The notes under the pieces were generated by a model. The model was not told where the DNA came from, ran no database searches, and saw nothing but the letters and a program-made list of their open reading frames with translations. A DNA stretch of 34,817 nt, taken from positions 1 to 34,817 of the forward strand of contig JAHIDZ010000018.1 in NCBI GenBank assembly GCA_018901755.1. The letters run 5' to 3'. Made by a program: the position numbers and the translations under genes. Positions 9,051 to 33,459 of the stretch are shown in pieces. Positions within the stretch are counted from its first letter, which is position 1. Each line of letters opens with the position of its first letter. Origin of the DNA: Nanobdellota archaeon. Lineage in GTDB: Archaea > Aenigmatarchaeota > Aenigmatarchaeia > Aenigmatarchaeales > Aenigmatarchaeaceae.

Positions 9051-9055
9051 AAACC

Positions 9056-10907: not shown

Positions 10908-13900
10908 ATGGTTTTTGACGTTGAAATCAAAGAAGGCTTAATGAGGATGAATTGTATTGGATCTATCTTTGGATTCACTCTAGAAGATTCTGACGTTATC
11001 ATGGCAAGAGTAATCGACTCATTAATATCAAATAAAAAAGTTACAGACATTATTCTTGCTGAAACAAGAGAATATGAATATGATTTCTCTCAAACAGAAT
11101 TATTAAAAGAAATAGCAGCGACAATTACAAAAATAGTAAAAGAAAAAAAATTAGTATCAATAAAAAATATTGGTCTAAAAACTTGTGATAAATATATTCC
11201 ACAATGGTATTCTTGGATTCAGGATCTTGTATCATTGCAAATGCGAGGAGACCCGATAGGGGCTTATTTAACACTAACTAGAGAGATAAGACATCTAAAA
11301 ACAAAAATGAACCTGTCTGAAGAATTTGGGCAATGTGCTGGATTTTTCTTAGAAAATTGTTTACTGCCAATACAAGAAATTTTAGAAGGTTGTAAATTAA
11401 TACAAATTGCAAAACCAAATTTCGTAGCCTACCACGTAGGTGATAGAAGCATTTATAGAAAAATATTCAAACCATCAATTCGTCCTAATTTCATGTATAC
11501 GAAATATATGGCGCAAAGACCAGATGGAGAAATAATTGACAAATATAAAATTGGTGATACAGATGTTGAGATATACAAGATACCTGGAGAAGTAAGGCAT
11601 ATATATCATATCATTCCTCCAGAGTTTAGATTAAAAGAAAATGAATATGTTCTGCTTGACGGAGCAAGAAGAATACTTGAAGAAAGAAGACCAAAGGAAT
11701 TAGAAATAAATGATCAAGAAAAAATGAGAGAACTCTTCTATACTTTGTCTGTAGACCTACTTAGAGATTTAGCCGAGCAGATGAATATTGTTATTGATGA
11801 AGAACAGATTAAAAAATTAGCAAGCATTCTTACAAGATATACAGCCGGATTAGGTATAATAGAATTATTGTTAGCTGATAGTAAAATACAAGATGTTTAC
11901 ATAAACGCTCCTTTAGGAAACATACCAATTTATGTTGGTCATCAAGATTATGAAGAATGTCAAACCAATTTAGTTCCTACACAATCAGATGCAGATCGTT
12001 GGGCAACAAGATTCAAACTTTTATCAGGACGACCTTTAGATGAAGCAAATCCAGTTTTAGATACTGAAGTTATGGTACCTGGTGGTGTAGCTAGAATCGC
12101 AGCAATAAATCCTAAATTATCACCAGATGGTTTAGGTTTTGCGTTAAGAAGACATCGTTACAAACCTTGGACATTTCCACTATTCATAAAAGAAGGATAC
12201 TTTGACCCATTGTTTGGTGGATTAATGTGGTTCATGGCATCTTATGGTAGAACATTCCTAATAGCTGGAACAAGATCTAGCGGTAAAACAAGTTTCTTAG
12301 CAAGCATGATGTTACAGATACTTCCTTATTATAGAATTATTACAGTAGAAGATAGTGTAACAGGAGACAGTAGGCTAGTAATAAAAAGAAATGGAAAATT
12401 CGAAAAAACTGAAATTGGTAAGCTGATAGATTCTCATATAGAAAAATATGGATGTATAAATAAATTCGGAAGAGAAATTGTTAATAATTTTGAAGACATA
12501 AAAATATTTTCTGTTGATAGAGAGGGTAAGACAAAATTATCAGACGTATCTGCGATGATAAGACATAAAGTAAAGAAAGATATATATGAAGTAGAAACAA
12601 CGACAGGAAGAAAGATAAAGGTTACCGGCGATCATTCGTTATTTACTGTTGGCGATGATAATGTTCTAAAAGAAATAAAAACAAATGAATTAAATACTGA
12701 TAGTTTTATAGCTGTTCCTAGAAATTTAAAATTTGATGCGGGCAAAAAAGATGAAATAGATTTATTGGAACATATGGATTCATTAGATAAATATTATGTT
12801 TCAGGTTATGGAATCAAAAATTTAATAGAATCCAGATGGAGTGAAATAAAAAGCATTTCTTCAGAATTAGATTATTCTAAATCTATGATATGCGCATGGA
12901 AAAGAAGCGCTATGCTTCCTGTTAAAATATTCAAAAGACTGAATGCTAAAGATATAAGTTTAGAATTTAAACCTAAATCTGGAGGGAACTCTATTAAAAG
13001 TAAAATAGAATTGGATGAATATATGCTGACGTTAATTGGTTTATGGCTGGCCGATGGTTGCTATGACAAAAAGTCTATTATAATCTCAGTTGTCTCTGAA
13101 GAAGAAAGAGACGTTGTTAGAAACATTGCCAAGCGTTTCGGGCTTCAGGTTAAGATGCATTCTGACAAAGTATCGCTTATAATAAACTCAGTTATTCTGA
13201 AAGACGTGTTTGTAAACGCACTTGGATTGAAAGGCGATGCCTATACAAAGGAAATACCTAGCTGGATATTTGATCTATCCTGCAGACAGAAGTCTTATGT
13301 CCTCAAAGGATTATTTTCAGGAGATGGATGTGCGGGAAAGAAAGAGATAGCAATACCTTTAAGCTCAGAAAAACTGCTTTATGATATTCAGACGCTTCTT
13401 TTGTCTTATGATGTGATACTTAGAAAATCCAACGAAAGAAAAACAGACGGAACGTTTAATGCTTCAATATCAACTGTAAAATCTTTCAAGAATTTTAAGG
13501 AGAACATAGGATTTTTACAAAAATACAAAAATGATAAATTGGCATTATTATGCTCAAAAATATCTACTCACGATTCAACAGATATCATACCTTTGTCAGC
13601 AGGAGTTAAAAACGAGTTAAATTTGGTATGCAACGATTTTAACAAACATGATTACATCACAAGGGAAAATAACATTGGAAGAGAACATCTAAATAAATTA
13701 ATAAACGGTATAGATTTGCACAAAATACCAAATCCTGTGAGATTTTTACCTTTTACTGATATATTGTGGGACAGGATAAAAAACATTAAAAAAATAAATT
13801 GCGCAGAAGAATACGTCTATGATATCTCAGTCCCAGAAAATGAGAACTTTGTTTGCGAGAATATACTAGCCCATAATACTCTAGAACTTCCAGTTGAAGC

Positions 13901-14663
13901 ACTAAGAAAAATAGGTTATAATATTCAAAGAATGAAATCACGTTCTGTTATTACAAAAATAGAAACAGAATTGCCTGCCGATGAAGCATTACGAACCGCG
14001 TTGCGTTTAGGTGATTCTTGCATGTTTATCGGTGAAGTTAGATCGGTTGAAGCTAAAGCATTATACGAAGCTATGCGTATCGGCGCGCTGGCTAACACGG
14101 TAGCAGGTACTATACACGGTGAATCTGCTTATGGAGTATTTGATAGAGTTGTTAATGATCTTGGTGTACCACCTACTTCGTTTAAAGCAACAGATATTGT
14201 TGTGGTTTGTAATAGACTAAAATCGCAGGATGGAATACACACTAGAAGGAGAATTGTTGAAGTAACTGAAGTAAGAAAACATTGGAAAACAGATCCACAA
14301 GACGAGGGCGGTTTTGTTAATTTAATGTCATATTCATCAGAAACAGATGGATTAAAACCAACAGACACTTTGTTAAATGGAGAATCTTATATTTTAAATG
14401 AACTTGCAAATAGAGTTCCTGGATGGGCTGGTAGATGGAATTTGGTTTGGGATAACATACAACTAAGAGCAAAAATATTAGAATCAATTGTTAGAATATC
14501 TAAAGAGAAAAATATGCCAGAGTTGTTAGAAGCTGAAACTGTAGTTAAATCAAATCAAATGTTTAGTGTATTGTGTGATAAGAGTAATACTGAAACAGGA
14601 TCAATTGATAATAAACGAGTATATGATGAATGGTTAGAATGGTTCAATAAACAGGTTGTCTAA
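10908..14663 (+). CDS. Type IV filament/secretion ATPase (FlaI/GspE/VirB11 superfamily) with an intein
   Basis: The precursor has 1251 residues; removal of the 508-residue intein leaves 743. Residues 1 to about 250 are an extra N-terminal region beyond the usual FlaI length. The ATPase part begins near YHIIPPEFRLKE and runs through LLADSKIQDVYINAP. Walker A is GTRSSGKT at 454-461, followed by YYRIITVED (480-482). After the intein come TLELPV, the Walker B-like SCMFIGEVRS (around 1035), and the His-box region AGTIHGESAYGVFDRV. The hexameric family powers pilus or archaellum assembly at the cytoplasmic membrane. The platform gene follows with no gap. ATG 10908 is taken as the start, but ATG 10941 is possible. 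Whether the cargo is a filament or secreted protein is unknown. Confidence 0.88.
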   Translation: MVFDVEIKEGLMRMNCIGSIFGFTLEDSDVIMARVIDSLISNKKVTDIILAETREYEYDFSQTELLKEIAATITKIVKEKKLVSIKNIGLKTCDKYIPQWYSWIQDLVSLQMRGDPIGAYLTLTREIRHLKTKMNLSEEFGQCAGFFLENCLLPIQEILEGCKLIQIAKPNFVAYHVGDRSIYRKIFKPSIRPNFMYTKYMAQRPDGEIIDKYKIGDTDVEIYKIPGEVRHIYHIIPPEFRLKENEYVLLDGARRILEERRPKELEINDQEKMRELFYTLSVDLLRDLAEQMNIVIDEEQIKKLASILTRYTAGLGIIELLLADSKIQDVYINAPLGNIPIYVGHQDYEECQTNLVPTQSDADRWATRFKLLSGRPLDEANPVLDTEVMVPGGVARIAAINPKLSPDGLGFALRRHRYKPWTFPLFIKEGYFDPLFGGLMWFMASYGRTFLIAGTRSSGKTSFLASMMLQILPYYRIITVEDSVTGDSRLVIKRNGKFEKTEIGKLIDSHIEKYGCINKFGREIVNNFEDIKIFSVDREGKTKLSDVSAMIRHKVKKDIYEVETTTGRKIKVTGDHSLFTVGDDNVLKEIKTNELNTDSFIAVPRNLKFDAGKKDEIDLLEHMDSLDKYYVSGYGIKNLIESRWSEIKSISSELDYSKSMICAWKRSAMLPVKIFKRLNAKDISLEFKPKSGGNSIKSKIELDEYMLTLIGLWLADGCYDKKSIIISVVSEEERDVVRNIAKRFGLQVKMHSDKVSLIINSVILKDVFVNALGLKGDAYTKEIPSWIFDLSCRQKSYVLKGLFSGDGCAGKKEIAIPLSSEKLLYDIQTLLLSYDVILRKSNERKTDGTFNASISTVKSFKNFKENIGFLQKYKNDKLALLCSKISTHDSTDIIPLSAGVKNELNLVCNDFNKHDYITRENNIGREHLNKLINGIDLHKIPNPVRFLPFTDILWDRIKNIKKINCAEEYVYDISVPENENFVCENILAHNTLELPVEALRKIGYNIQRMKSRSVITKIETELPADEALRTALRLGDSCMFIGEVRSVEAKALYEAMRIGALANTVAGTIHGESAYGVFDRVVNDLGVPPTSFKATDIVVVCNRLKSQDGIHTRRRIVEVTEVRKHWKTDPQDEGGFVNLMSYSSETDGLKPTDTLLNGESYILNELANRVPGWAGRWNLVWDNIQLRAKILESIVRISKEKNMPELLEAETVVKSNQMFSVLCDKSNTETGSIDNKRVYDEWLEWFNKQVV
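12354..13877 (+). mobile_element. Intein with LAGLIDADG (DOD) homing endonuclease
   Basis: This in-frame insertion of 508 codons has the standard splicing blocks. Ser1 lies in SVTGDSRLVI (block A). TGDHSLF follows (block B, His at intein residue 94). The two endonuclease motifs are LIGLWLADGC (from residue 227) and LKGLFSGDGC (Asp at about 324). The C-terminal part has VYDISVPENENFVC (block F) and ILAHN followed by extein Thr (block G). Removal joins RIITVED to TLELPVEAL, rebuilding the conserved acidic loop of the ATPase. All catalytic residues appear intact, so splicing and homing may both be active. The endonuclease stretch around 13020-13350 looks richer in G/C at third positions than the surrounding gene, hinting at transfer. 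Confidence 0.92.
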
Positions 14664-16745
14664 ATGAGTTTATTCTCTAAAAAAAGTAAATTAGAAGAAG
14701 CCGAAGAAAAGGCAAAAGAAATTAAAAAGAAAGAAATGGAAAAAATAAAAAAACTTGCCAGAATAGAACTTCCTTCTAAAAGCAAAACTGAAAAATTTAA
14801 ATCAACCGAATATAAACAATTTTTACAAGAAACTGAGAAGAAACCAGGAGTGTTTTATGAAAGAGCATGTTCATTATCTGAAAGAATTTTACCAATAAAA
14901 TTAGATGATGCTACGGAAATGGAACTATCTCAAAATTTATCAGCTGGTTTCATTAATACTACTGCAAGAGGAGTTGTGTCTTTTACAATTATATCTGCGA
15001 TAGTATTATCTATATTTTTATTATTTTCATTACTCATGGGACTAGGATCTACCATGGTAATAATATTAATGTTATTTGGCGGAATTGTAATTTATTATAT
15101 TTACAATTATCCGTCTTCTCATGCAAAATCCATGGGAATGAAAATGTCATCAGATGCAGTTCTTGCTATTTTGTATATGGTCATATATATGAGAACTTCT
15201 CCGAATTTAGAAGGTGCACTAAGATTTGCTACACAGAATCTTAAAGGACCACTTGCCTGGGATTTGAAAAAACTTATGTGGGATATTGAGGTTGGAAAAT
15301 ATGCTTCTGCAGATGATGCAATTGTTACATATGTATATAAATGGAAAGATAGAAACAAAGAATTTGCAGAATCATTACATCTTTTAAGAAGTATTGCAAC
15401 TGAACCTGTGAGAAAAAACATAATATTTGATGAAACCATAAATGTAATTTTAAATGGAACACGCGAAAGAGCTAAACACTATGCTAACGGATTAAGAATG
15501 CCAATGATGATTATCCATGCAATGGGAGTTTTGTTGCCGATAATGGGTCTAGTATTATTCCCAGTTGTTATGATATTCATGGGAGATGCAGTTAAACCGA
15601 TTTTTATATTCTTAGGATATGATATACTTCTTCCGGCATTCATTTACTTTTTCACTGATTATATTCTCCAGTCTAAACCACCAACATTTTCACAACCAGA
15701 CATATCATTAGTAAAAGGTATTGCCAAATTGGGCTACTATAGAGTTGGAAAATTTGATATACCTATTCTTCCTATAGCATTGGCAATTGGTATACCAGTT
15801 ATCTTGTTTGGTATACTCGGAATTACAAATCTAGACACGTATGTATCTGTATCATTTTCTATGCTAATAATAATAGGAATTAGTTTAATAATATCCGTAT
15901 ATACTTTTTTAGATAGTTATCAAAAAATGAAAATGAGAAATGATATTGAAAAAATAGAGGAAGAATTTTCTGTAGCACTATTCCAATTAGGAAATCTCAT
16001 ATCCAGTGGGTCGCCGATAGAACTTGCAATAGATCAAGCTAAAGTAAATTTAAAAAATATGAAGATAACTGATATGCTTGATATAACCAGCATGAACATG
16101 AAGAAATTTGGTTACACGCTAGAACAAGCTCTTTTCGATAAAGATGTTGGAGCAGTTTGGTATTATCCTTCTAGTCTAATACGATCTATAATGCAAACTA
16201 TTCTTGAATCATCTAAAAAATCAGCAAAAACTGCTGGAGACTCAATGATGGTAATTTCAAGATATTTGAAAGACGTACATAATGTAAAAGAAGAAATTGA
16301 TGAAATATTAGGAGAAACCATTTCATCAATGAAATTTTTGGCAATGTTTTTAGCTCCAATGATAGCAGGTGTTACTATAACAATGGCTGTTATCATACTA
16401 CAAATATTAACATCTCTCGGTGCTACTATGGGATCAATAACAGCTGCTAGTGGTGGAAGCAATATGGCATCAAGTATGTTAATAGGTTCATGGGGAATGT
16501 CGGGGACATTACCAGTTTCGCCTGTTACGTTCCAAATGATCGTTGGTATATATATGATAGAAACCGTTGTGTTGCTGTCTCTATTCCTTAATAGAATACA
16601 ATATGGTGACGATGCAATTGGAGAAAGATCTCTAATGAGCAAAACTATGATTATATCAATGATAGTTTATTTCATGAGTTGGGTAATAGTATATTCATTA
16701 TTTGGTGGATCAATATCAAGCTTATTGACTCCAATAGGTGTATAA
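14664..16745 (+). CDS. FlaJ/TadC-like membrane platform protein (two T2SSF-type domains)
   Basis: The 693-residue product has a charged N-terminal region and a hydrophobic pair (about 100-150). A first cytoplasmic helical domain follows (VIYMRTSPNLEGALRFA, KLMWDIEVGKYASADDAI), then more TM helices. The second domain is similar (FSVALFQLGNLISSGSPIEL, NMKKFGYTLEQALFD), and there is a C-terminal TM cluster. Duplicated T2SSF-like domains with this layout are typical of archaellum FlaJ and archaeal pilus platforms. These proteins anchor the ATPase and draw pilin subunits from the membrane. It starts at the base after the ATPase stop, so the pair is a coupled core module. Placing it as archaellum FlaJ itself is not justified: no flagellin or FlaG/F/H gene is seen. 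Confidence 0.85.
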   Translation: MSLFSKKSKLEEAEEKAKEIKKKEMEKIKKLARIELPSKSKTEKFKSTEYKQFLQETEKKPGVFYERACSLSERILPIKLDDATEMELSQNLSAGFINTTARGVVSFTIISAIVLSIFLLFSLLMGLGSTMVIILMLFGGIVIYYIYNYPSSHAKSMGMKMSSDAVLAILYMVIYMRTSPNLEGALRFATQNLKGPLAWDLKKLMWDIEVGKYASADDAIVTYVYKWKDRNKEFAESLHLLRSIATEPVRKNIIFDETINVILNGTRERAKHYANGLRMPMMIIHAMGVLLPIMGLVLFPVVMIFMGDAVKPIFIFLGYDILLPAFIYFFTDYILQSKPPTFSQPDISLVKGIAKLGYYRVGKFDIPILPIALAIGIPVILFGILGITNLDTYVSVSFSMLIIIGISLIISVYTFLDSYQKMKMRNDIEKIEEEFSVALFQLGNLISSGSPIELAIDQAKVNLKNMKITDMLDITSMNMKKFGYTLEQALFDKDVGAVWYYPSSLIRSIMQTILESSKKSAKTAGDSMMVISRYLKDVHNVKEEIDEILGETISSMKFLAMFLAPMIAGVTITMAVIILQILTSLGATMGSITAASGGSNMASSMLIGSWGMSGTLPVSPVTFQMIVGIYMIETVVLLSLFLNRIQYGDDAIGERSLMSKTMIISMIVYFMSWVIVYSLFGGSISSLLTPIGV

Positions 16746-16746
16746 C

Positions 16747-16875
16747 ATGACAGAAGAACTTACTAAACAAACTTTAATATATGCTGTTTTATTTGTAATA
16801 GTAATTGCTATTTTATTATTTTTTGCTATAACATATATAGCAGATTTTGACGTGAAATTATTAATGAATGGTTAG
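16747..16875 (+). CDS. 42-residue single-TM protein
   Basis: This small ORF runs from ATG 16747, after AGGTG just before the platform stop, to TAG 16873-16875. It has a short polar N-terminus (MTEELTKQT), one hydrophobic helix (LIYAVLFVIVIAILLFFAIT) and a short tail. It sits between the platform gene and the first large ectodomain gene and overlaps the open frame of the latter. No prepilin-type K-G site precedes the helix. It may be an assembly or stator-like subunit; this is inference. Size and position within a tight operon support it as a real gene. Confidence 0.65.
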   Translation: MTEELTKQTLIYAVLFVIVIAILLFFAITYIADFDVKLLMNG

Positions 16876-16879
16876 AAAC

Positions 16880-18235
16880 ATGAAAGGTCAGCAATATATA
16901 TTCGGACTTTTGTTTGCATTAGTTTTAGTAGTTGTATTTCTCCTAGTATCATTACCATTTTTACCAAGCGCTAAAGCAGATTTTCAAGAGCAAGGTGAAC
17001 CGAAACTTGCAGAAATAGTTGAATATTATGAAAATTATAGATTTAATCCTGAAGATTTATTTGTTAATCCAGAAACTGCATATGATGTTAGTGGAGATGA
17101 TGGTTACTTTACACCAGTTGATGGTATATCGCCATATTGTACCGATTTTAAAAACGCATTTATTGATTCTATAAAATCTAATGGTCAACCAAAAATTGTT
17201 AGTGAGATAGATCTGCTAACACATACGCAATACACAAATCCTTCAAATTTGCTATTTTCAAATTATATATGTAATGAACTTGAAATAACTGAAGAACAAA
17301 ATGATGTAACAAAATCAATTTGTACTATAAATACTGACTATGCTTCAGAATATTGGAGTGAGGTTGCTATAACGGATCCTTTCTATAATTATGAGCCATA
17401 TATACATGGTTGTTATATTCCTAATGATTTTATATCAACAATAAATGAAGATGGCACAGAATCAAAAGTAAAAATTTATCCATATTTACCACCACAATAT
17501 GCAGAAATGGATTATACAGATTTTCTATATTCTGAAACTGGGTATTCCATAAGAACAATAATAGTGAATGCATCTTTAGGTGAGGATACATATAGTCCTG
17601 AATGTGCATTTCATTTATTTGTATGTGTACAGCCAGCAATAGGTAAAAATGAAGATAGTGTTGCATATAAAATATTCAAATATTTTAAAGAAACAATTAA
17701 AAGCGAGATGGAATGTTGTAAAGGAGATACTACAAAAGTAAATTCTGCATATGCTCATCCATATACATTTGATTTTACTGACGAAACAGATAAACCAACT
17801 ATCGATCAAATAATGGTTATTCAAAATGCAGCACTGTGGGAATGGAGTAAGGAAAATTTTGATAATATTAATCTAATAAAACGCATTTTAAGTAAAAATG
17901 TACCAGATGACTGGGAGCCAGATTATGTCAAATTTGATTCTTTTGCTCAAAGTGGTTCATATGCAACTGGTGTATATCCAGATTGTGTAGATTGGAGTGC
18001 TATGGAACCAGATACTGTTGCAACAATGGTTCAGTTCAATTATGACATTTATGATACCAGTTTGTGGGGAGAAACCCGGAATAGAAACACAAATTATGAT
18101 AAATTGAGTATAACAACAACATTTGAATATAGTATAAAAAATATTGATAGTAACTCTGATGGAGATTTTAAAGACGCAGACGACTATCAAATTTTAATAA
18201 TAACACCTCATATATCGGTTTGTAGAGACAAATAA
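16880..18235 (+). CDS. Pilin-like anchored ectodomain protein, family member 1
   Basis: The 451-residue product opens M-K-G directly followed by QQYIFGLLFALVLVVV, a prepilin-like short leader and hydrophobic helix. The rest is predicted extracellular with about 10 Cys. It shares landmarks with four proteins downstream: YCTDFKNAFIDSIKSNGQPK (core start), CAFHLFVCVQPA (paired-Cys strand), a helix ending in W (AALWEWSKENFD), and a C-terminal strand ILIITPHISVC. ATG 16880 is preferred to the in-frame ATG 16868 because it gives the M-K-G start seen in many neighbours. The function is probably a filament tip or minor-pilin-like adhesive subunit (inference). Its last codons lie just before a new TATA box. 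Confidence 0.75.
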   Translation: MKGQQYIFGLLFALVLVVVFLLVSLPFLPSAKADFQEQGEPKLAEIVEYYENYRFNPEDLFVNPETAYDVSGDDGYFTPVDGISPYCTDFKNAFIDSIKSNGQPKIVSEIDLLTHTQYTNPSNLLFSNYICNELEITEEQNDVTKSICTINTDYASEYWSEVAITDPFYNYEPYIHGCYIPNDFISTINEDGTESKVKIYPYLPPQYAEMDYTDFLYSETGYSIRTIIVNASLGEDTYSPECAFHLFVCVQPAIGKNEDSVAYKIFKYFKETIKSEMECCKGDTTKVNSAYAHPYTFDFTDETDKPTIDQIMVIQNAALWEWSKENFDNINLIKRILSKNVPDDWEPDYVKFDSFAQSGSYATGVYPDCVDWSAMEPDTVATMVQFNYDIYDTSLWGETRNRNTNYDKLSITTTFEYSIKNIDSNSDGDFKDADDYQILIITPHISVCRDK

Positions 18236-18237
18236 AC

Positions 18238-18245
18238 TTTTTATA
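18238..18245 (+). promoter_or_regulatory. TATA box within the filament locus
   Basis: TTTTTATA is centred about 26 nt before the ATG at 18268, which has no ribosome binding site. It is an internal leaderless promoter that would allow separate control of the downstream part of the locus. Confidence 0.6.
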
Positions 18246-18267
18246 GAGAAAAGCAATATACTTTAGT

Positions 18268-20331: not shown

Positions 20332-20334
20332 TTA

Positions 20335-20508: not shown

Positions 20509-20509
20509 T

Positions 20510-20695: not shown

Positions 20696-20697
20696 TT

Positions 20698-25567: not shown

Positions 25568-25568
25568 A

Positions 25569-26201
25569 ATGGAACAACATGAAAAAACAGTTAATATGAA
25601 ATTTTTAATTCTTATGGTAGTAATAATAGTGATAATATTTGTTGCTCTTGCATTACAATGGACTAAAACACAACAATTGGTCGGTATGTCTGTAGAATTT
25701 AGTACACTGTGTGTTCAATGGCAAAATAAAAATTGTGAAATCCCTGAAGCACTTGAAGAAATAAATAGTGTACAAAGAGAAAATGATAAATTTACTTTAA
25801 CGGAAGAGTGTCTAAAATCATTTAATCAGGGAAGTAATGATAAAACGATAGTACTATGTCAAGATATATGTAAAAATAAATGTAATCCGCAAATATCATA
25901 TGATATTGCTGTTTACAAAGAAAATATAAAATTTGTAAGAATGGCAGACGGTACAGATCAAGTACAAGTTGAAATATTAAATCTTGGTTCTGGTTCTGTA
26001 TTTGATGTAGCAATAGAAATAAGAGAGTGTGATAATAGTAACAATATTATGCCAGATGATCAAACATATAACATACCATCACATGGAAGTTTAATTATAC
26101 TAGCAACTACTACAAAAACATGCATAGAAGCGGAAATAATGAATTATGATGATGCTAAAATAGAAAATAATTATGCAGAACGAGATTATTATGAGGTGTA
26201 A
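25569..26201 (+). CDS. Anchored protein with CARDB-like C-terminal domain
   Basis: The product has 210 residues from ATG 25569; an in-frame ATG at 25542 overlaps the upstream gene. It has a polar start, a TM helix (LILMVVIIVIIFVALAL), an LCVQW segment, and Cys pairs (EECLKSF, LCQDICKNKCNPQ) also seen in the next protein. Residues about 125-208 form a beta-sandwich-like region with a CARDB pattern (DQVQVEILNLGSGSVFDVAI, ending KIENNYAE). CARDB domains occur as adhesion modules in archaeal surface proteins. The domain call is by eye. Confidence 0.68.
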   Translation: MEQHEKTVNMKFLILMVVIIVIIFVALALQWTKTQQLVGMSVEFSTLCVQWQNKNCEIPEALEEINSVQRENDKFTLTEECLKSFNQGSNDKTIVLCQDICKNKCNPQISYDIAVYKENIKFVRMADGTDQVQVEILNLGSGSVFDVAIEIRECDNSNNIMPDDQTYNIPSHGSLIILATTTKTCIEAEIMNYDDAKIENNYAERDYYEV

Positions 26202-26204
26202 AAA

Positions 26205-26543
26205 ATGAAAATAATGACAATTTTAATAACATTGGTTGTTGTAATACTTCTAATAACAATAGCAGTTGGTATAGTGAAAGGGTTTCCAACAGATGCGGGT
26301 GGAAAAGAATCTACACTAATACAACTATGTGCTGTATGGAAAGATGAATATAAGTGTGATTCGATAGCATACCTAAATGAAGATGTAAGCAATCTAAAAA
26401 TATTATGTGAAGATTTTTACGGTAAAATCCCTGATATAGATTTAAATGAGGAAGGGGTTAATAAACATTGTAAAAAAATGTGCGTAGAAAATAATTGTAA
26501 TCCAATGATAATTAGTAGTACTGGAGGAGGTGAAATGCAATGA
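26205..26543 (+). CDS. Small anchored Cys-rich protein related to its upstream neighbour
   Basis: The 112-residue product starts at ATG 26205 after GAGGTG. A TM helix starts almost at residue 1 (ILITLVVVILLITIAVGIV). Then come LCAVWKDEYKC and KHCKKMCVENNCNPMI, parallel to LCVQWQNKNC and LCQDICKNKCNPQI in the 25569 product. It therefore looks like the same Cys domain without the CARDB-like part. Its 3' end overlaps the next start as ATGA. Confidence 0.7.
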   Translation: MKIMTILITLVVVILLITIAVGIVKGFPTDAGGKESTLIQLCAVWKDEYKCDSIAYLNEDVSNLKILCEDFYGKIPDIDLNEEGVNKHCKKMCVENNCNPMIISSTGGGEMQ

Positions 26544-26851
26544 AAGGAGCTTCAAATGTAATCTGGATAGTAGTTGTAACTTTATTGGCGCTTGTAGTTT
26601 TAATAGTATTGGTCGGCCCGATTGTACAGGGAGGAGACACTGCAAAAGATCAATTATCAATGAGTGATGCAATCAATTGTTGTAATAGTTGTTGGGCAGC
26701 AAATCCCGATGGAAATATTGGCGGAGAAGTAAAGTGTCCGGTAGCAGGGTCTGAAACTTCTCCATTAACAGGCACTGGAGGTTTATGTAAAAAAGTTTTA
26801 GGAAAAGAATGTGAATATTGTAGTGATATACCATTTTGTAGTCGTGGTTAA
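26540..26851 (+). CDS. Pilin-like small Cys-rich protein
   Basis: The 103-residue product starts M-K-G, then ASN and a helix (VIWIVVVTLLALVVLIVLVG). The tail has eight Cys, many paired or adjacent (INCCNSCW, KECEYCSDIPFC). The start overlaps the preceding stop, with GGAGG about 12 nt before it. This is the same minor-pilin-like layout as the 25140 product. Confidence 0.7.
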   Translation: MKGASNVIWIVVVTLLALVVLIVLVGPIVQGGDTAKDQLSMSDAINCCNSCWAANPDGNIGGEVKCPVAGSETSPLTGTGGLCKKVLGKECEYCSDIPFCSRG

Positions 26852-26853
26852 TA

Positions 26854-29673
26854 ATGTCTGCTGAAGATGTAAACAGAATATTGGGAGGAGTACTAATACT
26901 TATAATAGGCGTAGCTATAATGAACACAATGTTTTCATCTTCTGAATTAGATGATATGGCAGAACAAACTGCGTCTGCTATTGCTGATTCTATAAATGAA
27001 GCTGCGCTACTTCCTGCAGTTGATCATGAACCAACTTTAGATGAAGTAGATAAATATGTCCCCTTCGTGGTAAGGTTCGGAGATCCATTTAATTTTCTTA
27101 ATGCAAAAACTGTAGCATTTCAAGGAGCAAGACCATCTTATGAAGTATATTATGAAAAGTTTCCAGACGAATCTCCTTTTCCAGGTCCTTTAAGTTTCTT
27201 TACAATGTGGAAAGAAAGTTATCCTTGGTCAGGTGGAATGGCAACGCAAATTGGTATGTATTTTGCAATGCGTGGTTTAAATGCGGGGTTTGGAACAAAA
27301 ACTGGAAGAAAAGTTATGGGTGCACTTGCAGGAACTATAACATATCCTGTTAAACTTGCTTGGAGAGGTGCAAAATTTATAAGATCTATGCCAGCAAGAT
27401 TATTACTTGCACTTGATGGAGAAGTTCAAGTGTTTGGAACTAAAACAATAATGAAAGCTATTAAAAGTAATAGTGGATTTGGTGTTAGAAGGGCGACTTT
27501 AGAATTAATGTTGGAACCATTTACATGGATACCTAATACAATGGCTAGAAAAAAAATATTAAATGATGCCATAGCCAATGGATTTGAAGCAACATTTGAT
27601 GTTGATAAAAATGCAGGAGCTATGATGGAAGCTGTATTTAAAAATAAGCAAAAAGATTTGGGCATTACATATGATGGAAAACTTTCACCAGCATATAAAA
27701 GTCTTGATGAAGTTAAAACAATGAAAATAGCAATGTCGTTAATGGATACGAATGCAAAAAAAGCATTTTTAGAAAATGTGAAAGCACCACCACTTTTAAG
27801 CGAAACGAGATTTAAATTTAAAGATTGGGCAGAAGCTGCAAGAGGATGGGATGTATGGAAAAGAGACGGATGGAAAAATATTAAAACATTACGAGAATCT
27901 ATTGGAAATATCGGTACACGTATTAGTAGTGTTGGAAAAACTGCTGGTAGAGCTATTAGAACTGCTTTAAGAAAAACACAATTTGATGGCCCAACAATGG
28001 AAACAGAATCGTTTATGTCTGTGTATTTTAAAAGTAGCGATGATGCATATCGCCTTGCGAGAGGAAGATATAGAAATCTATTCGATGATGCTGATGCTGG
28101 TTGGTTTTGGTATGTATCAGAGTCTGCATATGGTAGCAATGTGCCGATAATGAAAAAACTAGATTTAATTAAAAATATGGCTAAAGGCGGAAGTACGCTT
28201 ATGACATTTCCAGATGGTACAACTGGCAAACAATACGCAGTATTATGGAGATATATGAGTGATAATATTGATCCTGAAGATTTAAGCAAAAATTTACCAT
28301 TTGATGAGTTAGATGATGCTACAAAAAATGCACTGATGAAAAAGGCTAAAGAATTAGCTGGATCAGATGGTCTATTCACAGATGATTTTCCTGAAGATAC
28401 TGTTCGAAAAATTTGGGAAATTGGTAGAGAAAACTATGCAAAAGATGGTAGTGCTGCAATTGAAAAAGCAGGTATGAAACTATATGCTGATCGAGCAGTA
28501 GCGGTAAAATGGAATCCAATAACTCAAATATATGAATCGAAAAATCCAAAAATATTAGCAGAATTACAAGATATAGTAGCTGGTAGAATTGAAACAAAAC
28601 CTACTAGAGCACTATTTGCAAGGAGAGCAGTAAGAGCAGTAATGTTTGATTATGGTAAATATAAAACACCAGTTACTGCAGGTGCATGGTTAACACAAAA
28701 AGCTGAAGAAGAAACTACAGAAAATTATGAAGGAAGTACTGATAATTCAATAGTCTTTGTTAAAAAGGGAAGTGTTGTGAATGTAATACCGCTTGATGAA
28801 AAAGTAGCATCATATGGTGTAAAAATAAGCAGAGAAAACCCATCTTGGACAGATAGAACACCAGTTGGTTTTCAAACAGCATTATTCCGTGCAAGTGTTA
28901 TAAATAATCCAAGATATTACACAGTAAGTCCGTGTTTTGGTACCGGAAAAGCATGGAAAGGCATTGATGATAATGGGGCAGAAAGAATATTTATAAAAAT
29001 GACAGATGAAGATAAGATGTGTGGCGGTTCAAAATGCACTCCGGGAGTAATTGGATGCGATCCAGCAGATTGTGCAAATTATTGTTATGCAACAACTGAT
29101 AGATTATTTGGAAAGGCTGACAACTCTCCGGCAACAGCAACATTTACAGCTGCCGCTGCAGCAACCACTGTATGTATGGCAGGAAGTGCGTATGTTTCAG
29201 GTGGCTTATCAACTAAACCATGTCTAATGGTAGGTGCAGCTGCTGGTTATACTACAATAGGCACTTTAATGTATAATCATAAATCAGATACGTCATGTAC
29301 TGAAAACTATTGGGGATATTGGAACTGGTATCTGGGATCAGATACAATGGATATACTTGAAATTATGACCACTACAGGTATTGGTTCATTTGCAAAAACT
29401 GCAAAAGGCGTTAAAATATTTGAAAAAATAGGTAAAGGTACTAGAGTCGCAGGTAGAGTTGGAAAAAATTTATTGACAGATACGTCAATGATACCACAAA
29501 CCCAAGGAGATTTAATATTATCTTGGCCTAACATTGGTGAGGAAAAATATGGTATAAATAAAGAATATATAGAAGAAAATCAAGCAGAATGCATTTGGGG
29601 AACTCCGGATAATGAAGAGGCTAGAAAAAATATATATGGTACTGATAATGATTTAGGGAGTCAATTGTCTTGA
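26854..29673 (+). CDS. Giant 939-residue anchored protein, unknown
   Basis: After MSAEDVNR comes a TM helix (ILGGVLILIIGVAIM). Most of the protein (about 100-700) is Lys/Arg-rich and helical with no Cys (WRGAKFIRSMPARLLLAL, SVGKTAGRAIRTALRK), unlike its Cys-rich neighbours. All Cys lie in the last third (CGGSKCTPGVIGCDPADC). Near residues 755-805 is an Ala/Gly-rich hydrophobic pair (ATATFTAAAAATTVC, VGAAAGYTTIGTLM) that could insert into a membrane. No family is recognised. The long basic helical body with a hydrophobic hairpin is reminiscent of pore-forming or tape-measure-like proteins, but that is only an analogy. It is the largest product of the locus and overlaps the next gene. Confidence 0.7.
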   Translation: MSAEDVNRILGGVLILIIGVAIMNTMFSSSELDDMAEQTASAIADSINEAALLPAVDHEPTLDEVDKYVPFVVRFGDPFNFLNAKTVAFQGARPSYEVYYEKFPDESPFPGPLSFFTMWKESYPWSGGMATQIGMYFAMRGLNAGFGTKTGRKVMGALAGTITYPVKLAWRGAKFIRSMPARLLLALDGEVQVFGTKTIMKAIKSNSGFGVRRATLELMLEPFTWIPNTMARKKILNDAIANGFEATFDVDKNAGAMMEAVFKNKQKDLGITYDGKLSPAYKSLDEVKTMKIAMSLMDTNAKKAFLENVKAPPLLSETRFKFKDWAEAARGWDVWKRDGWKNIKTLRESIGNIGTRISSVGKTAGRAIRTALRKTQFDGPTMETESFMSVYFKSSDDAYRLARGRYRNLFDDADAGWFWYVSESAYGSNVPIMKKLDLIKNMAKGGSTLMTFPDGTTGKQYAVLWRYMSDNIDPEDLSKNLPFDELDDATKNALMKKAKELAGSDGLFTDDFPEDTVRKIWEIGRENYAKDGSAAIEKAGMKLYADRAVAVKWNPITQIYESKNPKILAELQDIVAGRIETKPTRALFARRAVRAVMFDYGKYKTPVTAGAWLTQKAEEETTENYEGSTDNSIVFVKKGSVVNVIPLDEKVASYGVKISRENPSWTDRTPVGFQTALFRASVINNPRYYTVSPCFGTGKAWKGIDDNGAERIFIKMTDEDKMCGGSKCTPGVIGCDPADCANYCYATTDRLFGKADNSPATATFTAAAAATTVCMAGSAYVSGGLSTKPCLMVGAAAGYTTIGTLMYNHKSDTSCTENYWGYWNWYLGSDTMDILEIMTTTGIGSFAKTAKGVKIFEKIGKGTRVAGRVGKNLLTDTSMIPQTQGDLILSWPNIGEEKYGINKEYIEENQAECIWGTPDNEEARKNIYGTDNDLGSQLS

Positions 29674-30077
29674 AAGGACAACTAATGTTTAATGCTATGG
29701 TAATGGGCGCAATATTACTAATAACAATAATTATACTGAGCACAGCCTTTGGAAAAGGTGTTGTTGCTAATGCAATGACAGTATTCGGTGGAGCAAATCC
29801 AGAATATCTAGGAGAAGAATTTTCACTTTTAGCAACAACTGTACAATGCGCGCCAGGATACATGGAAGCTGGAATTATTCTAAACACTGCTAGACATATA
29901 AAAATCAGTTATAATTCAGAAAATTCAGACTATGAATTAGATGTTAATTCGAAAATAAAACCAATTTTACGGTTTACCGATATATCTCCAACGGAAAGTA
30001 ATGATGATTTCATCGGTCTTATATTATTTAAAAAAACATTAGAAAAAGTATTATATATTGAGGCCGATACCGCATGA
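29670..30077 (+). CDS. Pilin-like protein with TTG start
   Basis: The 135-residue product is read from TTG 29670, which overlaps the preceding TGA and follows GGGAG at 29656-29660. TTG gives M-K-G, then QLMFNAMVMG and a helix (AILLITIIILSTAF). The next ATG, five codons later, would lose the M-K-G, so this leader seems selected. The ectodomain is small with one Cys. ATGA overlaps the next gene. Confidence 0.65.
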   Translation: MKGQLMFNAMVMGAILLITIIILSTAFGKGVVANAMTVFGGANPEYLGEEFSLLATTVQCAPGYMEAGIILNTARHIKISYNSENSDYELDVNSKIKPILRFTDISPTESNDDFIGLILFKKTLEKVLYIEADTA

Positions 30078-30802
30078 AAGGAATATCAAAATTTTTTGGA
30101 ATGTTTTTAAACATAATGCAAATAATTTTTATAATCATAGGTCTTTTTGCAATTTTCATAAACATAACAACATTTGGATATTCAACAGAATTTGTAGCAG
30201 GAACCAGAGAATCTGTAATGGTTATGCAAGCAGTATTATCTGCACCGTGTCTTACAGTAATCGCCTCAGATGGATATCCTATAAGAGCATTGTTTGATGA
30301 AACAAAATTAATATCTGAAACTACGACAATAGATGCACCTTCCTGTATTTCATATCGTCAGGATATACTAATTGAAGTTACTGGTCACGGAGATCCTATA
30401 ATTATAGGAAATCCAGAGATAGGAACAATAAAACATACACAATATCCTGCTGCGCTAAAAACAATAGAAGGAACTACCGTTCCTGTACATGTAGATATTT
30501 CTGTTGGTTCTATACATGAGTGTACAAAAGCAGGACAATATGTATGTATGACAGGAGAATATGGAAATGAAATAATACTAATACCTGATTATAAAATGTA
30601 TTCAACGGTGTATAGAGGAAAATGTGTAACAGTAGATAACGAGTTTGTAATTCAAAGGAATACTGTTGAAAATTGCAATGTAGAATATTATGCAGATAAA
30701 AATAATGTCTGCACATGTCAATATGTTGAAGATAATGCTATATGCACATATCCGGGTGGAAATGTTCCAGATGCTAAATGGGCATGCACAAAAGTTGATT
30801 AA
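30074..30802 (+). CDS. Pilin-like anchored ectodomain protein
   Basis: The 242-residue product starts M-K-G, then ISKFFGMFLN and a helix (IMQIIFIIIGLFAIFINI). The ectodomain is beta-rich with Cys pairs (SAPCLTV, APSCISY, HECTKAGQYVC) and a C-terminal Cys cluster (NVCTCQYVEDNAIC). It shows no similarity to the five-member family. The start overlaps the preceding stop, and the next gene follows directly. Confidence 0.7.
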   Translation: MKGISKFFGMFLNIMQIIFIIIGLFAIFINITTFGYSTEFVAGTRESVMVMQAVLSAPCLTVIASDGYPIRALFDETKLISETTTIDAPSCISYRQDILIEVTGHGDPIIIGNPEIGTIKHTQYPAALKTIEGTTVPVHVDISVGSIHECTKAGQYVCMTGEYGNEIILIPDYKMYSTVYRGKCVTVDNEFVIQRNTVENCNVEYYADKNNVCTCQYVEDNAICTYPGGNVPDAKWACTKVD

Positions 30803-31582
30803 ATGAAAGGACTAAAAGGAGCGACAATACTTGCAGAAGTAATATCATTCATTTTCCTAATAATAACAGGATATGCATTAACTGGAACAATCATATTTGC
30901 ATATGGCGTATCTACAGTAGAACAAGCATTAACTTCAGATAATCTTGAATATCATATGACAATGACAGCTGGATATTTTCCTATACAAAATGAAGTAATG
31001 CTATTGAGTATGTTAGAAACTGATTGCGCCTCAAATGAATGCGCTGGGCTAACTGGTTCTCTTACACTTACTTCAGGATGGAATAACGGCATACTAATAC
31101 CAGAATTAGAAAGAATAAAAGTTAGCGACTTGCCAGATTGTATCGATTATGTACAAGGACAAGATGTTAGTGGAAATTGGATATTTTTTGGACAGGAAAA
31201 TTGGTTAGAAAAAAATATACCATATAATATATTAACAACTGTTGATTGTACGTGGACAGGTGATGGTATACCTATGAAAATATTAATAACAGAATGTCTT
31301 ATACAAGGAAATTCAAACCCATATATTAAAGAAATTGCAAAAACAATAAATGTAAATGATGCTATTACAGCAGCTGTATCTGGTTGGGGAACTAAAAAAT
31401 ACTCAATTATAATAAGAAAAGGAAATGGTAATATAATTAATTTAGCAGGAACTACTACACTAGCTGAAGAAATTAACAGCGGCAAATTAATAAAATTTCA
31501 AAAAATTTCATCTGAAGTATTTTCACCGTTTGAAACTGGATTTTTAGAATTATATGTATTCGATAATGAGGTAACTGATTAG
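30803..31582 (+). CDS. Pilin-like anchored ectodomain protein
   Basis: The 259-residue product starts M-K-G-L-K-G, so two K-G sites are available. Then comes ATILAEVISF with a Glu in the early helix and a hydrophobic stretch (FIFLIITGYALTGTIIFA). The ectodomain has Cys pairs (DCASNEC) and a segment VNDAITAAVSGWGTKK, which recalls the helix-ending-in-W landmark of the five-member family, though the rest does not align by eye. The ATG abuts the preceding stop. Confidence 0.7.
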   Translation: MKGLKGATILAEVISFIFLIITGYALTGTIIFAYGVSTVEQALTSDNLEYHMTMTAGYFPIQNEVMLLSMLETDCASNECAGLTGSLTLTSGWNNGILIPELERIKVSDLPDCIDYVQGQDVSGNWIFFGQENWLEKNIPYNILTTVDCTWTGDGIPMKILITECLIQGNSNPYIKEIAKTINVNDAITAAVSGWGTKKYSIIIRKGNGNIINLAGTTTLAEEINSGKLIKFQKISSEVFSPFETGFLELYVFDNEVTD

Positions 31583-31583
31583 T

Positions 31584-32639
31584 ATGAGAAAAGGACTTGT
31601 ATTACCAATAGCAGGAATAATCATGTTTGTTATATCAGTTGTAGCTGTCTATGTTTTAGCGCAACAAGATGGAAACTTTACAAAAGAAGTAATATTCAAA
31701 GGAGAAGTGACCGCATCTAATTTGAATGAATTAGAAATGATAAGAAAAATGTTACCTATGGCAATGGAAGCAACGATAGAAAGAGCTACATTTGAATCAG
31801 CTAAAGATGGATATGGTAAATCGTCATGGGGGTGCGTTGTTGCCACAGCCACATGTATCGCTACTATACCCACAACAGATGAAATAAAACAAAATTTAAT
31901 TAATGAAATAATAAAAATAAAAAAACCAACAATTGGAAATTATAACAGAGATATCACATGGTCAATTCCAGTAATAACAATAACAACAGGTTCAGATTAT
32001 CTAACTTATTTTAAAATATCTGGCTCATTTTCATTTAGACTAGAAGATAAAATCATAAAATCTAAAGCAGAATCATCTGTTCCAATTTCTGATACAATAT
32101 CAAGTTCTTATTTCAAATTATACGAAGTTGGAAAAAGTATATTTGTTGTTAATTCTGATGAATATAACATATTAAATAGAAATGCACCAGCTTGGTGGAA
32201 AATAGAACAATTAAAAACTACACTAATATCAAAAAGTCCTAGTCTTAACTTTTTAGTTGAAGAAGTAACTAACACAGAACTCAGAATAACAATAACAGAT
32301 CCAATAAGTCTTGTACCATGTGAACCAGGAGAAAGTGGATGTACCAATTCTATGAAACCACTATCAACAGTTTTCAAAATAACTATACCTGCTAGAATAA
32401 TTTATGATAATAAAGTAAATCCATTATTATTAGAATCTGGTTGGAATTTTGGAGTAAAAACACCTTATAGTTATGACATATATGCCTATGGTATTGATTT
32501 CTTTGGCGCTGATATATCAAAAGTTCGTGATAGTAATACTAATTTTGAACTTCAATATGGTGATATAATGTATGTTGATAAAGCATATGATATTATGGTA
32601 CATTCCGATCAAATGTGGTCCGGAGATTATATTCCTTAA
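31584..32639 (+). CDS. Pilin-like anchored ectodomain protein
   Basis: The 351-residue product starts MRKG, then LVLPIAG and a helix (IIMFVISVVAVYVLA). The R-K-G junction and the LPI start resemble the pilin pair downstream (KKG followed by MELPIN). The ectodomain is largely beta (SIPVITITTGSDYLTYFKIS) with four Cys (GCVVATATC, PCEPGESGC). GAGGTA lies about 12 nt ahead of ATG 31584. A TATA box follows the gene, so it is the last of the block that began at 18268. Confidence 0.7.
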   Translation: MRKGLVLPIAGIIMFVISVVAVYVLAQQDGNFTKEVIFKGEVTASNLNELEMIRKMLPMAMEATIERATFESAKDGYGKSSWGCVVATATCIATIPTTDEIKQNLINEIIKIKKPTIGNYNRDITWSIPVITITTGSDYLTYFKISGSFSFRLEDKIIKSKAESSVPISDTISSSYFKLYEVGKSIFVVNSDEYNILNRNAPAWWKIEQLKTTLISKSPSLNFLVEEVTNTELRITITDPISLVPCEPGESGCTNSMKPLSTVFKITIPARIIYDNKVNPLLLESGWNFGVKTPYSYDIYAYGIDFFGADISKVRDSNTNFELQYGDIMYVDKAYDIMVHSDQMWSGDYIP

Positions 32640-32645
32640 TTAAAG

Positions 32646-32653
32646 TTTATATA
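32646..32653 (+). promoter_or_regulatory. TATA box of the pilin pair
   Basis: TTTATATA is centred about 26 nt before ATG 32675. It fits a leaderless start and suggests separate, possibly stronger, expression of the two pilins. Confidence 0.62.
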
Positions 32654-32674
32654 CCAAGAAGTATTATATTTCTT

Positions 32675-33013
32675 ATGAAAAAAGGAATGGAATTACCAAT
32701 AAACACATTAGTTGTATTTATTATTGCATTAGTTGTTCTGATAGCATTCATTGCATTGTTCATGAATGTGCAAGGACAGGGTGGTAGCACTGTAAGTATT
32801 GAAACTGCTAAAAATAGTGGCTGCCAAAGATATGTAAGCATGAATTATTGTAATACCCCTACAACTTCTGGTTCATCAATATCCATACAATCTGTTCAAT
32901 GTTCTGATACTGCTAAAACTATTGCAAATGATCTTGAAACATTAGCTGCAAAATGCTATGGTATAACTGCCACAACAACAAATAGTGCAGCATCACAGTT
33001 ATGTTGTTTATAA
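32675..33013 (+). CDS. Type IV pilin-like protein, pilin pair member 1
   Basis: The 112-residue product has a textbook prepilin start: M-K-K-G, then MELPINTLV and a helix (IIALVVLIAFIALFM). The cleavage expected from archaeal prepilin peptidases (FlaK/PibD/EppA type) would fall after the Gly. The ectodomain is small and polar with Cys at SGCQRY, NYCN, VQCSD, AKCYG and a final CC. The leaderless promoter supports ATG 32675 over upstream in-frame starts. It is a candidate major filament subunit together with the next gene. Confidence 0.78.
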   Translation: MKKGMELPINTLVVFIIALVVLIAFIALFMNVQGQGGSTVSIETAKNSGCQRYVSMNYCNTPTTSGSSISIQSVQCSDTAKTIANDLETLAAKCYGITATTTNSAASQLCCL

Positions 33014-33033
33014 TTTATGGAGGAATGAAAAAA

Positions 33034-33459
33034 ATGAAAAAAGGAATGGAATTACCAATAAATATGTTAGTAGTAGTAGCAGTAGCAGTCGTAGTTTTAA
33101 TGGGTGTAATTGCTATATACATTCTAGGAGTTGGACCATTTCAACAAAGTGTAGGATTAGAAGCAATTAAGAATTCCGCTTGTTCTCTTTTAGTGAGAGA
33201 AGGATGCACTGCATCAACTTCAGGTATACATGTTAACACAGATGCGAATGAAGATGGTTTTGTATGTACAAAAAATATCGGTTATAATGCAAAAACTGGA
33301 ATTGGATACGATGAAGATACAGATACATGTCTATTTGCAGACGATGGAGAGAATGAAGCTAGAAAACCAGACACATTATTAGGTTTGTGCGCAAGTAAAT
33401 TCGGAAAAACTTCAGATTCAGCATGTAAAGCACTTTGCAATTGTCCAGGATACTATTAA
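33034..33459 (+). CDS. Type IV pilin-like protein, pilin pair member 2
   Basis: The 141-residue product repeats the N-terminus of its neighbour exactly through KKGMELPIN, then MLV and a helix (VVVAVAVVVLMGVIAIYIL). GGAGGA lies 9 nt before ATG 33034; the in-frame ATG at 33025 is too close. The ectodomain is different: a Cys-bounded region with an acidic segment (DTDTCLFADDGENEA) and CKALCNCPGYY at the end. The two pilins probably arose by duplication of the leader and helix with divergence of the exposed part. Confidence 0.78.
   Translation: MKKGMELPINMLVVVAVAVVVLMGVIAIYILGVGPFQQSVGLEAIKNSACSLLVREGCTASTSGIHVNTDANEDGFVCTKNIGYNAKTGIGYDEDTDTCLFADDGENEARKPDTLLGLCASKFGKTSDSACKALCNCPGYY

What the first reader, a model, noticed from the sequence alone, without database searches (positions are those of the whole stretch)
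10908..33459. A 22-kb uncharacterised type IV filament/secretion locus with about 22 exported subunits
An ATPase and a platform protein are followed by some 22 genes on one strand, often with overlapping stops and starts. Nearly every product has one N-terminal hydrophobic helix and a different extracellular part. Known archaella and Ups/Aap-type pili have few pilins; here the number, size range (39 to 939 residues) and Cys content are far outside that. No flagellin, FlaG/F/H or prepilin peptidase is seen in the window. Inference: a surface machine for attachment to or exchange with a host cell, as expected of a symbiotic DPANN lineage.
Basis: partly seen in the sequence, partly recalled or inferred. 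Interest (0 to 1): 0.9.

Follow-up and report, generated by a model that had tools for sequence, protein, structure and literature searches.

The report
DPANN pilus with swappable enzyme tips
This is the gene set for a type IV pilus-like surface machine that nearly every Aenigmatarchaeota genome (tiny, probably symbiotic archaea) carries, and in relatives one of its subunits carries different add-on domains, often enzymes that cut bacterial cell walls, which suggests that the pilus grips and opens other cells.

Summary
An ATPase and a platform gene are followed by 22 tightly packed genes. All 22 products have one N-terminal hydrophobic helix, and 14 have a Lys-Gly prepilin-type motif before it.

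This is a class-wide core system of Candidatus Aenigmatarchaeota. The ATPase occurs in 136 of 156 genomes and in all 39 that are at least 90% complete. It forms a clade apart from FlaI, GspE2 and CpaF, and the same layout recurs in Nanohaloarchaea. Twenty-two subunits is the maximum seen; the median is 10.

The main new result concerns gene 31584-32639. It belongs to a one-per-locus minor-pilin-like family whose C-terminus is swapped between genomes: peptidase M23, amidases, lytic transglycosylase, YkuD, GH39 or C-type lectin. Genes with cell-wall-hydrolase domains are enriched just downstream of the ATPase, 16 observed against 2.2 expected.

Best reading: a type IV-like pilus displaying a variable enzyme or lectin on one minor subunit, to bind or breach partner envelopes, in several lineages bacterial. 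The window's own copy has no recognisable payload.

The parts
7429..8007 (+). two-TM membrane protein, conserved upstream member
   Evidence: homologues at the same place in 15 of 32 loci
8000..9640 (+). three paralogous 5-TM membrane proteins (8000-8497, 8529-9050, 9098-9640)
   Evidence: one family, 67 members in 23 of 32 genomes, directly upstream of the coiled-coil/ATPase genes; also in Nanohaloarchaea
9646..10455 (-). cytoplasmic coiled-coil protein, divergent from the ATPase
   Evidence: 26 of 32 genomes, same place and orientation
10461..10838 (-). second small coiled-coil protein (weak FlaC_arch match, E 0.05)
   Evidence: a 120-150 aa reverse gene recurs at this place
10908..14663 (+). 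secretion/assembly ATPase (743-aa extein: residues 1-482 + 991-1251)
   Evidence: T2SSE Pfam match; solved relatives AfGspE 2OAP and FlaI 4II7; 136 of 156 class genomes; own clade
12354..13877 (+). intein (residues 483-990) with LAGLIDADG domain, between ...IITVED and TLELP...
   Evidence: PF14890 E 2e-28, PF14528 E 1e-14; orthologues align across the gap without it
14664..16745 (+). TadC/GspF-like platform protein, 9 predicted TM
   Evidence: weak PF00482 match, below cut-off; 31-62% identical orthologues next to the ATPase
16738..16875 (+). 45-aa single-TM protein
   Evidence: tiny TM ORFs recur at this place
16868..20219 (+). large exported proteins of family A (455, 432 aa) and a 217-aa exported protein
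   Evidence: the 455- and 432-aa genes are paralogues of the 801- and 618-aa genes; family found in 5 genomes of this set
20209..20880 (+). four tiny single-TM proteins (40, 57, 64, 67 aa)
   Evidence: similar tiny ORFs in other loci incl. Nanohaloarchaea
20877..25139 (+). Cys-rich exported proteins of family A (801 aa, 40 Cys; 618 aa, 26 Cys)
25140..26851 (+). small Cys-containing pilin-like proteins (92, 52, 219, 112, 103 aa)
   Evidence: four of the five fall in the pilin family of 32615/33001; the 92- and 103-aa products also match profile A8
26854..29673 (+). 939-aa exported protein (B939), fast-evolving
   Evidence: relatives in 8 genomes at 17-27% identity, conserved PRFY.VSPC...NYCYA motif; AF2 model unusable
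29670..31582 (+). three minor-pilin-like proteins (135, 242, 259 aa)
   Evidence: conserved block in 8-10 genomes; genes at equal positions in Nanohaloarchaea
31584..32639 (+). K-family minor pilin (351 aa): one per locus, C-terminus swapped for enzymes or lectins in relatives
32615..33459 (+). two candidate major pilins, KGMELPIN start, 4 conserved Cys (132 and 152 aa)
   Evidence: family in 20 genomes; invariant C61, C69, C146, C148; in this genome only found in this locus
33480..34289 (+). free-standing LAGLIDADG protein at the locus end, probably a mobile passenger
   Evidence: PF14528 E 2.5e-17; found in only 2 genomes

Best explanation
The locus encodes a type IV filament machine that is a core part of Aenigmatarchaeota cells, with relatives in Nanohaloarchaea. 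The ATPase and platform extrude a filament made mainly of the Cys-stabilised KGMELPIN pilins, processed by the prepilin peptidase encoded elsewhere. A cluster of minor-pilin-like subunits starts or caps the filament, and one of them, the K protein (31584-32639), presents a lineage-specific C-terminal domain to the outside. In relatives that domain is a peptidoglycan hydrolase, a glycoside hydrolase or a lectin. The machine therefore most likely attaches to, and in several lineages locally opens, the envelope of a partner cell; peptidoglycan hydrolases imply bacterial partners or prey in those lineages. Shown by sequence: machine type, conservation, one K per locus, payload swapping, enrichment of wall hydrolases. 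Inferred: filament assembly, tip position, partner contact, and the target in the window's own organism, whose K protein has no recognisable enzyme.
For: ATPase related to AfGspE (2OAP) and FlaI, weak platform match, prepilin peptidase in genome, 22 of 22 single N-terminal helices and 14 of 22 Lys-Gly motifs. ATPase in 136 of 156 class genomes, 39 of 39 of the most complete. Layout conserved. K family: one per locus in every locus where found, 39 records in the defining set (some the same genome twice) plus 14 loci fetched afterwards, of which two (G051, G043) are re-fetches and two (G035, G120) look like the same genomes as L189 and L157. Payloads on K: GH39 (G006), M23 (G036, G057, G093), Amidase_2 (G051), SLT+Amidase_2 (G029, G059), SLT+C39 (G060), YkuD+Amidase_3 (G043), C-type lectin (G037), lectin-like DUF1554 (G031). 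Leave-group-out scores for payload carriers from E 3e-26 to 2e-5. Wall-hydrolase genes within 15 kb downstream of the ATPase: 16 in 16 genomes against 2.2 expected, none within 15 kb upstream. G059, G060 and G093 were flagged by position and only afterwards found to carry the hydrolase on K.
Against: The window's K protein, and every other exported product here that was scanned, has no recognisable catalytic domain, and this genome has no M23, Glucosaminidase or Amidase_2 and one SLT outside the locus. No pilin fold was demonstrated: AF2 of K gave pLDDT 52 and no fold match, and B939 gave 37. Profiles of K, platform and B939 find no credible solved relative. G036, the weakest payload carrier in the leave-out test (E 2.4e-5), scored no better than a non-member pilin-like protein. 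Nanohaloarchaeal K proteins are linked only by profile-profile comparison and position. The enrichment test assumes a uniform 0.8 Mb genome and treats related genomes as independent. Filament formation has not been observed.
Confidence: 0.62

Rival explanations
1. A pseudopilus-type secretion pump (type II secretion-like): the many pilin-like proteins form a short piston that releases unrelated exoproteins, and the filament does not reach other cells.
For: The order small, small, medium, large minor subunits (135, 242, 259, 351 aa in the window; about 140, 140, 200, 340 aa in Nanohaloarchaea) recalls GspH-I-J-K (comparison from own knowledge). The ATPase is GspE-like.
Against: The enzymes are fused to pilin-type N-termini rather than encoded as separate soluble substrates, and dedicated pilins with several copies are present. 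No secretin-bearing outer membrane is expected in archaea (own knowledge). No sequence or fold match to GspK.
Confidence: 0.15
2. A general adhesion or twitching pilus with no special attack function; the enzyme domains help only to graze on dead cell-wall debris or to get through biofilm.
For: Most K proteins, including the window's, have no recognisable enzyme; lectin, LamG, CARDB and beta-helix domains among locus products are adhesin-like.
Against: Recurrent fusion of at least six different wall-active domains onto one subunit in several GTDB families (f8, f10, f14, f22) suggests selection for cutting murein at the point of contact.
Confidence: 0.2
3. A DNA-uptake or exchange pilus (competence- or Ups/Ced-like) serving nucleotide scavenging.
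For: Published inference that DPANN pili may import DNA (PMC9563170). A pilus carrying murein hydrolases could help reach host DNA.
Against: No ComEC/ComEA, Ced or DNA-import gene was recognised in the conserved locus by the Pfam scans, though these were not searched for by family.
Confidence: 0.1

Closest known systems
DPANN type IV pilus 'dark matter' islands (Makarova, Wolf and Koonin 2019, PMC6393860)
   Same: pilus ATPase and TadC with many signal-peptide-bearing genes of no detectable similarity, interpreted as diverse pilins
   Different: a figure-level description; the text read here does not describe a payload-swapping subunit, wall-hydrolase link, class-wide conservation, upstream 5-TM block or ATPase placement. 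Whether any island in its Figure 2A is an orthologue could not be checked, because figures are not held
Archaellum (FlaI/FlaJ)
   Same: ATPase of the same superfamily; platform adjacent; a weak FlaC-like coiled-coil hit
   Different: FlaI model scored 122 bits against a cut-off of 550; ATPase outside FlaI in the tree; no flagellin, FlaH, FlaG or FlaF matched in the products scanned
Archaeal GspE2/Tad-type pili, including the two other ATPase loci in this genome (contigs C11 and C18)
   Same: GspE2-like ATPases; the C11 locus also has two separate multi-TM genes and KG-type pilins next to its ATPase
   Different: ATPases about 25-32% identical to this one and in another clade; the C11 pair of short multi-TM genes contrasts with one long platform protein here
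Modular minor pilins of bacteria: PilV of plasmid TP114 (PMC9045228), PilB of Streptococcus sanguinis (PMC8179133)
   Same: one minor pilin carries an adhesive module displayed by the pilus
   Different: bacterial; modules are adhesins, not murein hydrolases; no homology shown (both known here from abstracts only)
Archaeal peptidoglycan hydrolases that kill bacteria (PMC12352652)
   Same: reports such enzymes as prominent and diverse in Nanoarchaeota, and kills a bacterium with haloarchaeal ones
   Different: modular enzymes, the tested ones with Tat signals; the main text holds no mention of pili
Saccharibacteria type IV pili in episymbiosis (PMC12206443)
   Same: title and abstract link type IV pili to host binding in ultrasmall episymbionts
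   Different: bacterial, unrelated lineage

Membership tests
Type IV filament superfamily | GspE/FlaI/VirB11-type assembly ATPase | tested here: met
   PF00437 E 3e-11, over cut-off; 2OAP E 7e-30, FlaI E 6e-18
Type IV filament superfamily | GspF/TadC platform protein | tested here: inconclusive
   PF00482 E 0.0067, 16.8 bits, below cut-off of 25.2; 9 TM segments and adjacency to the ATPase fit
Type IV filament superfamily | subunits with prepilin (class III) signal and one N-terminal helix | tested here: met
   22 of 22 single helix, 14 of 22 Lys-Gly before it
Type IV filament superfamily | prepilin peptidase in the genome | tested here: met
   PF01478 E 1e-13 at C13:11808-12119; PF06847 absent
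Type IV filament superfamily | pilin fold of subunits and an assembled filament | tested here: inconclusive
   low-confidence AF2 model of K with long N-terminal helix then strands, no significant fold match; filament not testable with these tools
Archaellum | ATPase in the FlaI family | tested here: not met
   NF058587 122 bits against cut-off 550; outside FlaI
Archaellum | flagellin, FlaF/G/H encoded with the motor | tested here: not met
   no such match among window products
Type II secretion system | secretin and substrate release | not tested
   secretins were not searched for; no matching gene among window products scanned; substrate release cannot be tested here
Bindosome (Bas) assembly system | BasE ATPase | tested here: not met
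   NF053672 50 bits against cut-off 1000
One of the ten archaeal T4P types of Makarova 2016 | ATPase in one of its clades or arCOGs | not testable with these tools
   arCOG models not available; separate from FlaI and AfGspE2 references
K-family payload minor pilins (defined here) | N-terminal domain shared by payload carriers and the window gene 31584-32639 | tested here: met
   leave-group-out E 3e-26 to 2e-5; the window gene was among the seeds; alignment

The most novel reading that the evidence does not exclude
Aenigmatarchaeota carry a contact-dependent, envelope-piercing pilus whose single K subunit is a polymorphic payload carrier; murein hydrolases on it mean that several lineages of these DPANN archaea live on or prey upon bacteria rather than archaea, and the payload predicts the kind of host.
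Probability: 0.4. Interest if true: 0.9.

Novelty: new variant of a known kind. Interest (0 to 1): 0.72.

Why it matters
Hosts and attachment machinery of nearly all Aenigmatarchaeota are unknown, to this author's knowledge. A near-universal pilus locus with a readable, swappable payload gives a sequence-based prediction of what kind of cell each lineage touches, archaeal or bacterial, and enzymes that can be expressed and tested now without culturing the organism. It also gives an archaeal case of type IV pilin modularity carrying lytic enzymes, and links the reported but unplaced peptidoglycan hydrolases of DPANN archaea to a possible delivery device.

Tried and rejected
(1) Archaellum, bindosome and GspE2 membership: rejected by curated cut-offs and the ATPase tree. 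(2) Reading 22 subunits as the defining oddity: relatives have a median of 10 and the excess is partly gene duplication. (3) Fold evidence: AF2 of the K protein and of the 939-aa protein gave low confidence and, for K, no match; profile searches of solved structures gave nothing credible. (5) The 354/371-aa M23 proteins of G043 and G019 were first put in the K set by position; they are not K but other pilin-like subunits, and G043 has a separate K protein of 1203 aa with YkuD and Amidase_3. (6) G052's C25 protein starts like an ordinary Sec signal and is not counted as a pilus payload. (7) A binning error as the source of the murein hydrolases is unlikely: the domains lie in the same ORF as the archaeal K domain on ATPase contigs. 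(8) A first family search timed out and was replaced. (9) Literature searches for pilus-linked peptidoglycan hydrolases in archaea found no earlier report in the held library; subscription journals and preprints are not covered.
Full report
OBSERVATION. The window is contig C2 of an 835-kb, 21-contig genome, 90.8% complete. An ATPase gene (10908-14663) and a multi-spanning membrane gene (14664-16745) are followed by 22 plus-strand ORFs to 33459. Spacing never exceeds 32 nt and 13 of 21 neighbours overlap; each product has one N-terminal hydrophobic segment and 14 have a Lys-Gly dipeptide just before it, as in archaeal prepilins. Of the products scanned, none reaches a curated Pfam or NCBIfam cut-off.

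The 1251-residue ATPase holds an intein of 508 residues inserted at IITVED|...HN|TLELP; the 743-residue extein is collinear with orthologues. The conserved unit begins further upstream: one two-TM and three related five-TM membrane proteins (7429-9640) and two divergent coiled-coil genes (9646-10838) recur at the same place in most genomes. A prepilin peptidase (PF01478) lies on contig C13.

WHO CARRIES IT. Orthologues of the ATPase occur in 136 of 156 genomes of the class and in 39 of 39 that are at least 90% complete. A scan of named genome contigs with the platform alignment returned 80 loci, most labelled Candidatus Aenigmatarchaeota, with Nanohaloarchaea at 33-35% identity and two labelled Woesearchaeota at 31%. 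In a maximum-likelihood tree the orthologues, including Nanohaloarchaea, form one group split from FlaI, AfGspE2, CpaF and most other ATPases of the same genomes (100/100); one sequence labelled paralogue, a second copy in G009, falls inside the group.

COMPOSITION VARIES, ORDER PERSISTS. Thirty-one relatives' loci were gathered and annotated. The order is 5-TM genes, coiled-coils, ATPase, platform, tiny TM proteins, one or more large exported proteins, small Cys-containing pilins, a block of three or four minor-pilin-like genes, two pilins, Alba. In the window the large slot has grown by duplication: the 455, 432, 801 and 618-aa genes are one family seen in only 5 genomes of the set. Across 44 loci with five or more exported genes the median is 10 and the window's 22 the maximum; several loci are cut by contig ends and some genomes are counted twice. 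The KGMELPIN pilins share four invariant cysteines and in this genome are found only in this locus.

THE K PROTEIN AND ITS PAYLOADS. The 351-aa gene (31584-32639) starts MRKGLVLPIAGIIMFVI. A profile of its first about 160 residues finds one protein per locus, never two, in 39 locus records and in 14 loci fetched afterwards; both sets include some genomes counted twice. The C-terminal parts differ: GH39 in G006; M23 in G036, G057 and G093; Amidase_2 in G051; SLT plus Amidase_2 in G029 and G059; SLT plus C39 peptidase in G060; YkuD plus Amidase_3 in G043; C-type lectin in G037; a lectin-like DUF1554 match in G031; CARDB in G005. Many, including the window's, have no recognised domain. G017 (no enzyme) and G036, G057 (M23) are in the same GTDB family and share the N-terminal half. 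The M23 zinc motif is intact in G036, and the SLT glutamate region and amidase histidines are present in G029 by eye. When each payload group was left out of the profile it was still found at E 3e-26 to 2e-5; the weakest, G036, ties with a non-member, so its place in the family rests also on position and on G017 and G057.

IS THE HYDROLASE LINK MORE THAN CHANCE? Searching all 156 genomes for M23, Glucosaminidase, SLT and Amidase_2 gave 118 merged genes in ATPase-bearing genomes. Sixteen, in 16 genomes, lie within 15 kb downstream of the ATPase start against 2.2 expected, 12 on the same strand, none within 15 kb upstream (Poisson P about 2e-9, optimistic because related genomes are not independent). 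G059, G060 and G093 were flagged by position and then proved to have the enzyme on K. Other cases in G019, G032 and G043 are on other pilin-like products; G119's amidase has a Tat-like start and G103's SLT is in a 3,127-residue surface protein, so neither counts as pilus payload.

MECHANISM. From established type IV filament biology, the ATPase and platform would polymerise processed pilins, and minor pilins would start and cap the filament. K would thus sit at or near the tip and carry its C-terminal domain outward. A murein hydrolase there makes sense only against bacteria or their remains, because archaea lack murein (own knowledge). Tip position, polymerisation and contact are inference; the four-gene minor block recalls GspH-I-J-K by size and order only, and neither AF2 nor profile search supported it. 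The 939-aa protein remains unexplained.

RELATION TO KNOWN WORK. Makarova et al. 2019 (PMC6393860) showed DPANN islands of this general type and called their products diverse pilins. Makarova et al. 2016 (PMC4858521) modelled ten archaeal pilus types; their main text does not contain the terms DPANN or Woesearchaeota. A 2025 study of archaeal peptidoglycan hydrolases (PMC12352652) noted them as prominent in Nanoarchaeota without mention of pili. A Nanohaloarchaeota study reported Tad-type clusters with no pilins annotated (PMC9563170). The linkage of wall-active enzymes to one swappable pilus subunit was not found in the papers searched.

VERDICT. Observation confirmed; interpretation partly supported. 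The machine itself is a new variant of a known kind; the payload-swapping K subunit is the part that would surprise a specialist. For the window's organism the partner cannot be named.

Noticed in passing
12354-13877: Intein in the ATPase; about 17 of 136 orthologues have frames over 1,100 aa that break at query residues near 461, 482 or 538, suggesting repeated intein invasion at more than one site.
   Followed up: partly
33480-34289: Free-standing LAGLIDADG protein between the last pilin and Alba, present in only 2 of 32 loci.
   Followed up: no
G049 and G054 loci (L072/L073, L063): Giant exported proteins (6,286 and 1,950 aa) sit between ATPase and platform.
   Followed up: no
L096:4037-7917, L097:5293-9076: A second, divergent ATPase-platform pair (36-37% identical ATPase) with pilin-like genes in G009 and G012; the G009 copy groups within the same ATPase clade.
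   Followed up: partly
L198:4625-7689, L200:12293-15278: Opposite-strand pair next to K: a membrane protein with M23 or SLT domain and a lipoprotein-like gene.
   Followed up: partly
L095:7566-9614 (own genome C21): 682-aa protein starting like an anaerobic ribonucleotide reductase activase with an apparent intein-like interruption; read by eye only.
   Followed up: no
1308-2123 and 4920-5690: Two TRM5/TYW2-type tRNA methyltransferase genes close together on opposite strands.
   Followed up: no
2196-4891: Saccharopine-dehydrogenase-like gene adjoining a pyridoxal decarboxylase gene, a pairing that may be polyamine synthesis (function from own knowledge).
   Followed up: no
own genome C21:60976-61314: The only SLT-domain gene of this genome, 296-aa frame, outside the locus.
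   Followed up: no
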